Of a stretch of 64,000 nucleotides of DNA, positions 32,686 through 53,778 are shown piece by piece; position 1 is the first letter of the stretch, and every line of letters begins with the position of its first letter. The translations under genes and the position numbers were made by a program. The notes beneath the pieces were generated by a model. That model saw only the letters and a list, made by a program, of their open reading frames with translations. It was not told the DNA's origin and did not search any database. The stretch is from Filomicrobium insigne. Lineage in GTDB: Bacteria > Pseudomonadota > Alphaproteobacteria > Rhizobiales > Hyphomicrobiaceae. Where the stretch lies: positions 1 to 64,000 of the forward strand of contig NZ_FNJC01000001.1 in NCBI RefSeq assembly GCF_900104305.1, read 5' to 3'.

Positions 32686-32854
32686 CTGCACCGCGGCAAT
32701 AATATGCTGCAGCGCAACATCAGAACTCAGACGGCACGCATAAGTCTGCCTACGCCAGCGCGTTGGCATACCAGCGAGCAGTAATTTTCTGAAATCACCC
32801 GGGTTTAGTGCGCTTTGTCGGCTTTGGGTTGCGCCGTAGCGTCGATGTCCGCCC

Positions 32855-32945
32855 CAAAAAGAAAAGGGGCCGCTCGAAAACGAACGGCCCAAGTCTAGGG
32901 AGGAAACGCCCAAGGAGGGCTGCGGCATCGAGAGCATATGTCATC
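32855..32945 (-). ncRNA. Tandem sRNA candidate 1 (suhB/mmgR (alpha-r8)-like)
   Basis: On the minus strand a small 5' hairpin GCCC-TCCTT-GGGC is followed by an unpaired TTTCCTCCCTAGACTT, then the terminator hairpin GGGCCGTTCG/CGAGCGGCCC and a T-rich run (CTTTTCTTTTT). The exposed UUUCCUCCC is complementary to a Shine-Dalgarno sequence. The same core recurs at 33255-33330. Upstream TTGATT and CTATTT with 16-base spacing (near 32970-32997) could be a promoter, so the 5' end is approximate. The resemblance to the Rhizobiales suhB/mmgR RNA family is from memory. Confidence 0.65.
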
Positions 32946-50251: not shown

Positions 50252-50479
50252 TGCAGCAACGCTCCTGGATCAAGCAACGAAAAACGCAATACGCCAGCGC
50301 CAAAGCTAGGAGGTTGTGGTTAACCATCCGTTTAGCGTTGGTCACATCACCGCCCGCATTGGCGGATCAAAATGTGTCTGATACACAGACATGACCCAGA
50401 GGGATTGGGACCTACAAGGGGCTGCAGCCGCGGGCAACCATCGGCTGCGAAAGAGGGAGCCGCCACGGGGGCGGATAGG

Positions 50480-51532
50480 ATGGCGCAACAACGGGTCAAG
50501 CTGAGGGCTATCGAGGGCGGCGCCGGGCGCGCACCTGCGAAAAAGCCGACCAAGTCGAAATCCAAGACCTTGGCATCGGTGGAAGCCGCTACACGCACGG
50601 TGCGGCTAGAAGTCGAAGGGCTTGCCGCTCTTGATGAAGCGCTGCAGAACGGACTTGGAAAGCCGTTTAGCCAAGCGGTTAAGCTGCTCGCCGCCGCACG
50701 TGGCCGCGTGATCGTTTCCGGCATCGGCAAATCAGGGCATGTCGGCCAGAAAGTTGCCGCGACGTTTGCCTCGACTGGTACGCCATCGTTCTTCGTGCAT
50801 CCGAGCGAAGCCTCCCACGGTGACCTTGGGATGATTACGCCAGATGATGTGATCCTCGCGATCTCATGGTCTGGCGAGACCGTCGAACTCAAGAATATCA
50901 TTACGTATTCGCGGCGCTTTTCCGTGCCGTTGATCGCAATTACATCACGGAAAACTTCGGCGCTCGGCGGGCAAAGCGATGTCTGCCTGGAGTTGCCGCG
51001 GGCTAAAGAAGCCTGCCCACACGGATTGGCTCCAACCACGTCCACGACCATGCAACTGGCGATGGGTGATTGTCTGGCGGTTGCGCTCTTGGAGGCCAAG
51101 GGCTTTACGGCCCATGACTTTAAGGTGTTTCACCCGGGTGGTTCGCTCGGTGCGTCGTTGAAATACGTCGGCGACCTGATGCACAGCGGCGAAAAGCTTC
51201 CACTGGCCCGCAGTGACGAGCCGATGGCCGCCGCTCTCGTTACGATGACAGCCAAGGCGTTCGGATGCCTTGGGATCGTGAACGGGAAGGGTAAAATGGT
51301 CGGTATCGTCACCGATGGTGATTTGCGGCGCCACATGGGGGCAAGTCTGGTCGATGCGGTTACCCGCGATGTGATGACTAAAAACCCCAAGACCGTCGAA
51401 CCAGGGATGTTGGCCTCTGCCGCGCTTGAGCTTATGAACTCAAAACGCATTACGGCATTGTTCGTCGTCGAGAAGGGACGGCCGGTCGGGATCGTGCATG
51501 TCCACGACATGCTGCGCGCAGGCGTTGTCTGA
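50480..51532 (+). CDS. kdsD: Arabinose-5-phosphate isomerase (KdsD/KpsF)
   Basis: 350 residues. SIS domain (about 60-200: RVIVSGIGKSGHVGQK, STGTPSFFVHPSEASHGDLG, ISWSGETVEL) followed by two CBS domains (FGCLGIVNGKGKMVGIVTDGDLRR and ITALFVVEKGRPVGIVH). Interconverts ribulose- and arabinose-5-phosphate, the first step to KDO for lipopolysaccharide. The ATG at 50480 has GGATAGG upstream; the longer frame is rejected. The lysine-rich N-terminal 50 residues are extra relative to the E. coli enzyme. Confidence 0.93.
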   Translation: MAQQRVKLRAIEGGAGRAPAKKPTKSKSKTLASVEAATRTVRLEVEGLAALDEALQNGLGKPFSQAVKLLAAARGRVIVSGIGKSGHVGQKVAATFASTGTPSFFVHPSEASHGDLGMITPDDVILAISWSGETVELKNIITYSRRFSVPLIAITSRKTSALGGQSDVCLELPRAKEACPHGLAPTTSTTMQLAMGDCLAVALLEAKGFTAHDFKVFHPGGSLGASLKYVGDLMHSGEKLPLARSDEPMAAALVTMTAKAFGCLGIVNGKGKMVGIVTDGDLRRHMGASLVDAVTRDVMTKNPKTVEPGMLASAALELMNSKRITALFVVEKGRPVGIVHVHDMLRAGVV

Positions 51533-51539
51533 GCGCAAT

Positions 51540-51566
51540 AACGGCGGCCCGCAGGGGACCGCCGTT
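51540..51566. terminator. Shared terminator core 1 (kdsD / small peptide 1)
   Basis: AACGGCGG (51540-51547) pairs with CCGCCGTT (51559-51566). It follows the kdsD stop on the plus strand and also lies 29 bases beyond the stop of the minus-strand peptide gene at 51596. An almost identical core occurs after the second peptide gene. Confidence 0.55.
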
Positions 51567-51595: not shown

Positions 51596-51733
51596 TCAGT
51601 CGCCCTGGAAGATGGGGTTATCGCATCCCTGACCGCTGTACGACAGTGGAGCTGCTTGCGCTGCACCGAATGCGCCAGCGAGAACTACGAGGGAAAGGGC
51701 AGCCAGTCCGAAGGTCTTTGCGATCATGTTCAT
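51596..51733 (-). CDS. Small secreted peptide, copy 1
   Basis: 45 codons. The ATG at 51733 (an in-frame ATG at 51727 is also possible) has GGAG 8 bases upstream. The product is a 28-residue signal sequence (FGLAALSLVVLAGAFGAAQA) followed by an 18-residue mature tail, APLSYSGQGCDNPIFQGD. The gene is too short for ordinary ORF calling. Its paralogue at 51943-52086 has the same architecture and tail motif D-[NS]-P-[IV]-F-Q-G. I do not recognise a family; function is unknown. The tail holds one cysteine, which copy 2 lacks. Confidence 0.7.
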   Translation of the reverse strand: MNMIAKTFGLAALSLVVLAGAFGAAQAAPLSYSGQGCDNPIFQGD

Positions 51734-51883
51734 CTCATTGTCTCCATGTGTTTACGTCACCCGTTGTGACTGAAGGGACAATGCTCCGAGCTCCGCCATT
51801 CGCATGTTTCTCAGGGAACATTCTCTGGTAGGTTCACGAGAGTGTGACGTATGCCGCCCAACTCCAACGTCATTCTCAATGAA

Positions 51884-51910
51884 TACGGCGGTCCCAATGG
51901 AACCGCCGTA
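51884..51910. terminator. Shared terminator core 2 (small peptide 2)
   Basis: TACGGCGGT (51884-51892) pairs with ACCGCCGTA (51902-51910), 33 bases beyond the stop of the second peptide gene. Same core and spacing as the hairpin at 51540-51566, suggesting the duplicated unit was gene plus terminator. Confidence 0.5.
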
Positions 51911-51942
51911 CCGTCTCCGATCGATTTATGCGAAGTCAGGGA

Positions 51943-52086
51943 TCAGTTGCCCTGGAAAACAGGACTATCGATGCCCTGGCTTCCGAAGGGTGCGTGCTTG
52001 GTATGCGCTTGAGCAGCCCCCATGACGCCCAGCGACATCGTCGTTATGGCAGCTGCTACGATCAGTGTCTTTGCGATGGCTTTCAT
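51943..52086 (-). CDS. Small secreted peptide, copy 2
   Basis: 47 codons, with GGAG 6 bases before the third ATG of a run of three (52086). Signal sequence MKAIAKTLIVAAAITTMSLG to GAAQA, then a short mature tail, HTKHAPFGSQGIDSPVFQGN. It shares the [MK]-x-AIAKT start, the GAAQA cleavage site and the D-S-P-V-F-Q-G-N end with copy 1. About 200 bases of non-coding DNA separate the two. Expression and function unknown. Confidence 0.7.
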   Translation of the reverse strand: MKAIAKTLIVAAAITTMSLGVMGAAQAHTKHAPFGSQGIDSPVFQGN

Positions 52087-52233
52087 CATCATCTCCACTT
52101 TTTAAAAGCGCCTTTTATTCTGACGCTTATCTGGATTTAGGCAGTGGAGATGATCCGCCAAGAGCGAATACGCGCGTTTCACCGGGGTGTGACGCACCGT
52201 GATTTTTGCGGAGACTAATTAATTTTGCGAGGG

Positions 52234-52719
52234 CTACTCGGCGGTGCGCTGTACGATCAAAACAGTCGCATTGACGCCGACAACCTTCACTCTGGTTCCG
52301 GCAGGTAAATCTGGGCCTTCCGCTTGCCACAAGCTATCTCCCACCTGGACCTTGCCGCGCCCATCAACGATGGGTTCGACGACAGTGAAGGTGCGTCCTA
52401 CGTAACGAAGCGCGCGCGTATTAAGGCCAGGCTCATCGCTAGGGTCCAAATCGGGACTCGAATAGCGCCGGACGAAAAGTACGGCTGCCATTGACAACAA
52501 TGCAAACGCAACGAGTTGAAGTTGCCAGGTAAAAAGCTCGGCGGCTTCTGGAACAAAATTAGCAAATGCCAACGTGACCGCGCCGATAATCATCGCGGCG
52601 AGCCCGAACCAGATCAAATAGACCCCTGGCAGAAGGGTTTCCATGACGAACAACGCAACGCCGAGTATCACCCAATTCCAAGGACCAAGGCTGCCGAAGA
52701 AATCTGTTAATCCAGCCAT
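52234..52719 (-). CDS. NfeD-family membrane protein
   Basis: 161 residues. Three hydrophobic helices (about 15-30, 33-52, 62-82; LGVALFVMETLLPGVYLIWFG) and a C-terminal OB-fold-like NfeD domain (YVGRTFTVVEPIVDGRGKVQVGDSLW ... VKVVGVNATVLIVQ). Partner of the SPFH protein encoded directly upstream, the usual NfeD/slipin pairing at membrane microdomains. Its start lies 90 bases downstream of the SPFH stop on the minus strand. Confidence 0.9.
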   Translation of the reverse strand: MAGLTDFFGSLGPWNWVILGVALFVMETLLPGVYLIWFGLAAMIIGAVTLAFANFVPEAAELFTWQLQLVAFALLSMAAVLFVRRYSSPDLDPSDEPGLNTRALRYVGRTFTVVEPIVDGRGKVQVGDSLWQAEGPDLPAGTRVKVVGVNATVLIVQRTAE

Positions 52720-52809: not shown

Positions 52810-53778
52810 TCAGGTGCGGGGCACCGAGCCGCGTGACGCAGGCGTGGACGGAGGAGACTGATCCTTCTTGAAGGCCTGTCCTGTAATCTCCGCGAGCCCG
52901 GCGATGGAGCCAATCACCGATGACGCTTCTAACGGCATCATGATCACTTTCTGGTTCGGAGAGGCCGCCAACTTCTCCAGCGCCTTCACGTAATTGTTGG
53001 CGACGAAGTAGTTGATGGCCTGGACGTTCCCATTGGCAATCGCTTCAGACACCATCTGCGTGGCCTTGGCTTCGGCCTCGGCTTGGCGCTCGCGTGCCTC
53101 GGCGTCCTTGAATGCAGCCTCACGGCGTCCTTCCGCCTCTAGCACCGCTGCTTGCTTCTCGCCTTCGGCTTCAAGGATGGCGGCTTCCCGTGCGCCTTGA
53201 GCTTCCAAAATCTGGGCCCGCTTTTCGCGTTCGGCTTTCATCTGGCGGGCCATCGAGTCGACGAGGTCACGCGGGGGATCGATATCCTTGATTTCGATGC
53301 GGGTGACTTTGATGCCCCAAGATTCAGTCGCCGCGTCCACGACGTGGAGTAGCTGCGCGTTGATGTGGTCACGGTTGGACAGGAGCTCATCGAGGTCCAT
53401 CGAACCCATAACGGTACGAATGTTCGTCATCGTCAGATTGATGATCGAATGTTCGAGCATATCGACTTCATATGCGGCGTTAGCAGCGTTGATGACCTGA
53501 TAGAACGTGACGCCGTTGACGCGCACCATAGCGTTATCGCGGGTGATGACATCCTGCGAAGGAATATCGAGCACCTGTTCCTTCATATTCATACGGGTAC
53601 CGATACGCTCCATAACCGGAACCAGAATATGCAGTCCCGGCTGTAGCGTGCGGGTGTAACGTCCAAAACTCTCGACAGTATAATTGTACCCCTGAGGTAC
53701 GATCTTCACAGTCGACCAAAGCGCCGCAATGGCCGCCAAGATCAAAAGGGCTCCAAGGAGGCCCAGTCCGTCCAACAT
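52810..53778 (-). CDS. SPFH/stomatin-family protein (QmcA-like paraslipin)
   Basis: 322 residues. One N-terminal hydrophobic segment (about 3-22), then the SPFH domain (KIVPQGYNYTVESFGRYTRTLQPGLH, VLDIPSQDVITRDN, GSMDLDELLSNRD) and a long coiled-coil rich in Glu-Ala repeats (AILEAEGEKQAAVLEAEGRREAA). Probably scaffolds inner-membrane microdomains with its NfeD neighbour. GGAG lies 7 bases before the ATG. Confidence 0.92.
   Translation of the reverse strand: MLDGLGLLGALLILAAIAALWSTVKIVPQGYNYTVESFGRYTRTLQPGLHILVPVMERIGTRMNMKEQVLDIPSQDVITRDNAMVRVNGVTFYQVINAANAAYEVDMLEHSIINLTMTNIRTVMGSMDLDELLSNRDHINAQLLHVVDAATESWGIKVTRIEIKDIDPPRDLVDSMARQMKAEREKRAQILEAQGAREAAILEAEGEKQAAVLEAEGRREAAFKDAEARERQAEAEAKATQMVSEAIANGNVQAINYFVANNYVKALEKLAASPNQKVIMMPLEASSVIGSIAGLAEITGQAFKKDQSPPSTPASRGSVPRT

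What the first reader, a model, noticed from the sequence alone, without database searches (positions are those of the whole stretch)
51596..52086. Duplicated, apparently undescribed family of tiny secreted peptides
Two minus-strand genes of 45 and 47 codons each encode a clean signal sequence ending GAAQA and a mature tail of about 18-20 residues ending in D-N-P-I-F-Q-G-D or D-S-P-V-F-Q-G-N. Each gene has its own GGAG ribosome site and its own downstream hairpin with the same core (ACGGCGG/CCGCCGT) at nearly the same distance from the stop. Conserved amino acids with diverged DNA suggest a duplicated unit under protein-level selection. I do not recognise a family. A secreted signal, metal or surface-binding peptide are all possible. 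Seen in the sequence; function is unknown.
Basis: partly seen in the sequence, partly recalled or inferred. Interest (0 to 1): 0.7.

Follow-up and report, generated by a model that had tools for sequence, protein, structure and literature searches.

The report
Undescribed family of tiny exported peptides
Two neighbouring mini-genes encode what look like exported peptides of 18 and 20 residues, from a small, apparently undescribed family found in one bacterial genus and conserved mainly at the last five residues, which suggests that another molecule recognises the tail; the function is untested.

Summary
Window 51596-51733 and 51943-52086 (minus strand) encode 45- and 47-residue precursors, each with a signal-like start ending AAQA, a GGAG site and a downstream hairpin. 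They are related genes; a third copy lies on another contig. I found 14 members in 8 of 9 genomes of the genus. The same profile found none in 94 other genomes of the taxonomic family or 384 others of the class. The last five codons are constrained as protein (pooled pN 0.10, pS 0.65), the preceding six are not (0.61, 0.73). Conservation is thus anchored at the carboxyl end, [VIFL]F[QKE]G[DN]. No curated family matches. One copy group lies near kdsD, another between a two-component system and a copper-type P-type ATPase. A paralogue with a different tail (TVHGYLGTxYGG), and other tandem mini-genes, occur in further genera. Most likely these are exported peptides whose C-terminal tail is read by an envelope or extracellular partner, a signal-like ligand. 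Export, cleavage and recognition are inferred; no partner was found and nothing shows expression. Metal binding is plausible only for the five members whose mature part starts with His.

The parts
51596..51733 (-). Peptide gene 1, 45 codons plus stop: MNMIAKTFGLAALSLVVLAGAFGAAQA / APLSYSGQGCDNPIFQGD
51653..51733 (-). Predicted signal peptide of gene 1 (27 residues, ends AAQA)
   Evidence: sequence and simple rule; cleavage inferred
51599..51652 (-). Predicted mature peptide 1 (18 residues, tail PIFQGD)
51943..52086 (-). Peptide gene 2, 47 codons plus stop: MKAIAKTLIVAAAITTMSLGVMGAAQA / HTKHAPFGSQGIDSPVFQGN
52006..52086 (-). Predicted signal peptide of gene 2 (27 residues)
   Evidence: sequence and simple rule; cleavage inferred
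51946..52005 (-). Predicted mature peptide 2 (20 residues, starts HTKH, tail PVFQGN)
51742..51745 (-). GGAG ribosome site of gene 1
52093..52096 (-). GGAG ribosome site of gene 2
51540..51566 (-). Hairpin after gene 1 (AACGGCGG...CCGCCGTT), also just after the convergent kdsD; possibly a two-way terminator
   Evidence: termination inferred
51885..51909 (-). Core of the hairpin after gene 2 (ACGGCGG...CCGCCGT)
   Evidence: termination inferred
51804..51819 (-). GTTCCCTGAGAAACAT, imperfect copy of the GTTCCN4GGAACA palindrome upstream of several kdsD-type members
   Evidence: motif search had no shuffled control
51830..51849 (-). CGTCACACTCTCGTGAACCT, element shared with the gene 2 upstream region
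52175..52194 (-). CGTCACACCCCGGTGAAACG, matching element upstream of gene 2
50372..51532 (+). Convergent neighbour kdsD/kpsF (SIS plus CBS domains; KpsF/GutQ family above cut-off)
52234..52719 (-). Upstream neighbour with NfeD C-terminal domain
52810..53778 (-). SPFH/Band 7 protein

Best explanation
Each gene is a short unit for a Sec-exported peptide. The signal peptide is removed after A-x-A (mostly AQA), releasing a soluble, uncharged to acidic peptide of 16-20 residues into the periplasm and perhaps beyond. A variable spacer of 11-15 residues carries a C-terminal recognition tail, [VIFL]F[QKE]G[DN] with a free carboxylate. The tail is read by a specific partner in the envelope or in neighbouring cells, so the peptide most likely acts as a signal-like ligand; extra copies and tail changes (FQGD, FKGD, FEGD, FQGN) tune dose or specificity. 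Shown: gene anatomy, family, constraint on the tail, tandem copies in three genomes. Inferred: export, cleavage, recognition, signalling. No partner was identified.
For: Fourteen members in 8 of 9 genus genomes. Tail five codons pN 0.10, pS 0.65; preceding six codons 0.61 and 0.73, over 78 non-independent pairs of 13 members (G008b left out). The tail keeps its distance to the stop although spacer length and sequence vary. A strong hairpin lies within about 35 nt of the stop in 14 of 15 genes folded (14 members plus the C8 paralogue); the exception, G008b, is followed directly by G008c. Shared upstream elements in kdsD-type copies (no shuffled control). Tandem pairs in G000, G001 and G008. Mature charge (K+R-D-E, His ignored) -4 to 0 and negative GRAVY, unlike a cationic membrane-active peptide.
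Against: No receptor gene was recognised among the neighbours read, and no expression data exist. C-terminal conservation would equally suit a stability tag or binding to a structural protein. The only linked protease seen, a trypsin-PDZ gene, is beside one copy (G008a) only. The C8 paralogue shares upstream DNA and signal peptide with the C9 copy but carries another tail. G004 has no copy within 1,497 bases of kdsD, where G003's copy lies in a stretch that does not align with G004. G002 lacks a standard start codon. G005 (70% complete) has no member at E 1e-5.
Confidence: 0.37

Rival explanations
1. The peptides are periplasmic microproteins that bind and tune an envelope protein (a sensor kinase, an SPFH/NfeD complex, a PDZ protease) by the C-terminal tail, with no intercellular role.
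For: kdsD-type copies lie near kdsD, NfeD-domain and SPFH genes in the window, G001 and partly G008; G008a is followed by a trypsin-like protease gene with PDZ domains, and PDZ domains binding free C-termini is recalled knowledge. The second group is divergent from an OmpR-type regulator gene, with an EnvZ-like kinase gene next to it in G003.
Against: The neighbourhood is not constant: G006, G002 and G001 copies lie beside a Polyketide_cyc2 gene, and the C9 copy lies near an ABC-2 transporter gene and other unrelated genes.
Confidence: 0.31
2. Metal peptides: members whose mature part begins with His (G003a, G004, G008b, G008c, window gene 2) bind Cu(II) through the free N-terminus and His and help copper handling.
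For: G003a, G004 and G008b/c share one alignable island, in which the peptide lies between a regulator and methyltransferase, permease and copper-type P-type ATPase genes. TGTAAC repeats lie between regulator and peptide in G003 and G004. N-terminal His as a copper ligand is recalled (CopC-like proteins, LPMOs).
Against: Nine of 14 members do not start with His. Four have one Cys, at three different distances from the end. No metal gene was recognised among the ORFs read beside kdsD-type copies.
Confidence: 0.12
3. Secreted antimicrobial peptide or bacteriocin.
For: Short, signal-peptide bearing, sometimes tandem, lineage-restricted.
Against: Charge -4 to 0, hydrophilic; no immunity or transporter gene recognised beside the window pair.
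Confidence: 0.06
4. Small RNAs with incidental ORFs.
For: Hairpins and shared upstream DNA.
Against: Codon-level constraint in the tail and a conserved frame and signal peptide, with a standard start in 13 of 14; no Rfam match at gathering score in this stretch.
Confidence: 0.05

Closest known systems
Exported Phr/PapR/NprX-type signal peptides of Firmicutes (recalled; NprX seen only in a search listing, PMC5641580)
   Same: Short Sec-exported precursor, variable middle, activity expected in the last residues, small sets of paralogues.
   Different: No RRNPP receptor gene recognised beside the window pair; no evidence of further processing or re-import.
MNIO-modified bufferin-type precursors (DUF2282; recalled)
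   Same: Small exported precursor; a copper neighbourhood for one branch.
   Different: No Cys-rich core, no modifying enzyme recognised beside the window genes, no Pfam match.
Sister family TVHGYLGTxYGG found here
   Same: Same size, signal peptide plus conserved C-terminal part, a tandem pair in G031; the own C8 member shares upstream DNA and signal peptide with the own C9 member.
   Different: Different tail; read in four genera (own, G021, G030, G031) rather than one.
Small proteins of Sinorhizobium meliloti found by Ribo-seq (PMC10117765, passages read)
   Same: Short ORF-encoded proteins of an alphaproteobacterium.
   Different: The passages seen describe membrane proteins and lipoproteins, not exported peptides with this tail; supplements were not read.

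Membership tests
Any Pfam-A or NCBIfam family | Score at or above the curated cut-off | tested here: not met
   where cut-offs are shown none is reached; weak matches only (best E 0.0076, PraB, 2 of 14 members)
Known structure family (PDB) | Significant sequence match | tested here: not met
   best E 0.046, profile positions 6-30, i.e. the signal-peptide part
Phr/RRNPP signalling system | Adjacent RRNPP-type receptor gene | tested here: not met
   window neighbours are kdsD, NfeD-domain and SPFH genes; a distant receptor was not searched for
Phr/RRNPP signalling system | Signal peptide with short C-terminal active peptide | tested here: inconclusive
   signal-like start and conserved C-terminal tail present; activity not testable
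MNIO/bufferin | Conserved Cys residues and a neighbouring modifying enzyme | tested here: not met
   4 of 14 members have one mature Cys, 8, 9, 9 and 10 residues from the end; window neighbours
Cationic antimicrobial peptide | Net positive mature part | tested here: not met
   -4 to 0, His ignored
FQGD family (defined here) | Signal-like start ending A-x-A and terminal F-[QKE]-G-[DN] | tested here: met
   13 of 14 members; G008b ends FDDMGD

The most novel reading that the evidence does not exclude
A peptide-ligand system of Gram-negative bacteria: tiny Sec-exported peptides built as promoter plus signal peptide plus exchangeable C-terminal code word (VFQGD, TVHGYLGTxYGG, VHGVWDxIWAExxGK and others), multiplied in tandem and replaced between lineages, acting as lineage-specific signals. 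The C8/C9 pair of this genome, alike in upstream DNA and signal peptide but with tails of two families, would be a case of code-word exchange.
Probability: 0.17. Interest if true: 0.78.

Novelty: new variant of a known kind. Interest (0 to 1): 0.47.

Why it matters
Genes this small are often left out of annotation, and exported peptide signals are, as far as I recall, rarely documented in Alphaproteobacteria. A family with a constrained C-terminal motif and natural tail variants is directly testable with synthetic peptides, and the sister families suggest an overlooked class of exported mini-genes.

Tried and rejected
Chance: rejected by homologues and codon pattern, although signal-like small ORFs alone are at background level. 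Structural RNA: no Rfam match at gathering score in this stretch, weak E-value matches only. Full-length proteins ending PVF[QKE]G[DN] (enoyl-CoA hydratase type, name recalled) turned up in tail-pattern searches and are unrelated. Plasmids: the G003a peptide had no match, the G003b peptide one chance hit inside moaC, the sister-type G057 peptide no match; the window peptides themselves were not searched there. EcfG-type promoter (recalled consensus): no matching second box seen by eye in the loci. ChvI regulation: a lead from GTCACA-like sites, present in only some members, not followed. Literature: searches listed nothing describing this family (two returned no papers); of one paper only passages were read. 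Structure prediction was not run.

Limits. The genome contigs pattern scan can see only 4 of the 14 known members; it gave 14 stretches, 2 of them family members, both in the genus, and 12 unrelated frames. One search scored at most 18 first-look candidates per genome, at most 29; one search scored every candidate in the rows listed. Loose profile searches are swamped by signal peptides; of the rows outside the genus only those opened were read and none had the tail. kdsD neighbours were checked with a home-made signal-peptide and ribosome-site rule over 565-2790 bases.

Full report
Observation. Both minus-strand ORFs exist as described: 51596-51733 (45 codons) and 51943-52086 (47 codons), each with a GGAG site, a signal-like N-terminus ending AAQA, a short tail region and a hairpin whose ACGGCGG/CCGCCGT core begins 30 and 33 nt after the stop. 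The own hairpins do not meet the simple terminator scan. Signal-like small ORFs alone are at background level: 4 in the window, mean 3.15 and range 0-9 in 20 Markov versions. The case rests on homology.

Family. In the own genome the first peptide finds the second (44% identity, E 3e-4) and a third copy on contig C9 (E 0.0097). Profile searches and reading of fetched loci give 14 members: three in G000, two in G001, one in G002, two in G003, one each in G004, G006 and G007, three in G008. Five of them (G003b, G001a, G001b, G008b, G008c) were found by a profile that did not contain them, at E 3e-11 to 4e-4. G005 (70% complete) has none at E 1e-5. With all 14 in the profile, no member appears in 94 other genomes of the taxonomic family (one row at E 8e-8, G075, is the signal peptide of a longer protein) nor in 384 others drawn from the class, where at most 18 candidates per genome were scored. 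Two named records from genome contigs, LOEV01000210.1 (MAG BRH_c36) and JAHZKP010000118.1, have the contig lengths and peptides of G003:C210 and G008:C3. No call names the window's genus.

Selection. Over 78 pairs of 13 members (G008b, with two extra residues in the tail, was left out), the last five codons have pN 0.10 and pS 0.65, with identities 0.77, 1.00 and 0.61 at codon positions 1-3; the preceding six codons, aligned from the right without gaps, have pN 0.61 and pS 0.73. Pairs are not independent. G006/G007 gives dN 0.10 and dS 0.47; G003a/G004 has 3 non-synonymous and 2 synonymous changes, too few to judge; the two window copies have pS 0.74 and pN 0.40. So the tail is constrained as protein, at a fixed distance to the stop, while the spacer drifts.

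Units and places. Of 15 genes folded (14 members plus the C8 paralogue) 14 have a strong hairpin starting 9-33 nt after the stop; the exception, G008b, is followed directly by G008c. kdsD-type upstream regions share a GTTCCN4GGAACA palindrome 89-95 nt before the start in G001a, G001b, G003b and G008a, imperfect in window gene 1, weaker or not found in the others (the motif finder was run without a shuffled control). An exact form occurs in 8 of 9 genus genomes, not in G000: 69 strand matches against 18 for the reversed pattern, palindromic sites counting twice. In five of the loci read it precedes a gene starting MKLT[IV]VGSGDAFGSGG. A convergent copy follows kdsD in five of seven genus genomes with a kdsD hit (G000, G001, G003, G006, G007; in G003 another small ORF lies between). 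G004 has none in 1,497 bases; G008 shows only 569 bases there, and its copy lies instead after SPFH and two NfeD-domain genes, upstream of a trypsin-PDZ protease gene. None of 24 kdsD loci from other genera showed one under the rule used (the best 30 loci of 33 genomes with a hit were examined, G006 was judged from its places). A second group (G003a, G004, G008b/c) lies between an OmpR-type regulator and methyltransferase, permease and copper-type P-type ATPase genes. Regulator, methyltransferase and ATPase were assigned in both G003 and G008, the permease in G003; the G004 and G008 loci align with the G003 locus at 85-86% and 72-87%.

Copies and tail replacement. In the tree of kdsD-type units the G001 pair groups together (ultrafast bootstrap 96) and a split of 86 separates the window pair from the other seven; in the protein tree of 14 the window copies are not together (gene 1 beside C9, gene 2 beside the His-starting group, 71), so the history of the window pair is unresolved. 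On contig C8 a paralogue shares upstream DNA and signal peptide with the C9 copy, but its tail is DPITVHGYLGTNYGGK. That tail belongs to a sister family read in G021, G030 and twice in tandem in G031; its profile matched 8 of 297 genomes at E 0.001, not all of which were read. Other tandem mini-genes were read in G057, G041 and G207. Seven such peptides gave no Pfam match at cut-off. This suggests, but does not prove, a modular class.

Interpretation. A C-terminal motif under selection, after a spacer that is not, on a hydrophilic, uncharged to acidic peptide with a signal-like start is what one expects if a partner binds the tail. I judge a signal-like ligand most likely (0.37), a local envelope modulator next (0.31), copper binding limited to the His-starting branch (0.12). 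Export, cleavage and recognition are inferred; nothing here shows expression.

Known families. No Pfam, NCBIfam or PDB match of note, and no relevant plasmid match for the two family peptides tried. Literature searches listed nothing on it; one paper was read in passages only.

Noticed in passing
L119 4197-4322 (own contig C8); L233 1498-1623; L234 1495-1614; L235 1498-1632; L240 1498-1632: Sister family of tiny signal-peptide genes with tail TVHGYLGTxYGG; tandem pair in G031.
   Followed up: partly
L245 1462-1590 and 1726-1854; L246 1501-1629 and 1681-1809; L122 3381-3866: Further tandem mini-genes with signal peptides and other tails (VHGVWDxIWAExxGK; CxPYYG; IWEQQ/WWEQQ) in G057, G041 and G207.
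   Followed up: partly
L159, L165, L172, L177, L184: GTTCCCNNGGGAACA palindrome shortly upstream of a gene starting MKLT[IV]VGSGDAFGSGG in five genus genomes; regulator unknown.
   Followed up: no
L009 about 1495-1632 (G002): Family member whose frame has ATC ATC AAA where relatives have an ATG start; assembly error, rare start or decay.
   Followed up: no
L130 5880-6060 (upstream of G003a): TGTAACGGCGTGTAACA direct repeat between an OmpR-type regulator gene and the peptide gene; same spacing in G004.
   Followed up: no
L129 6797-8392 (G008): Trypsin-like protease with PDZ domains downstream of the G008a peptide gene; PDZ domains are recalled to bind free C-termini.
   Followed up: no
window 32852-32927 (minus): Rfam suhB/mmgR small RNA match at 74 bits.
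   Followed up: no
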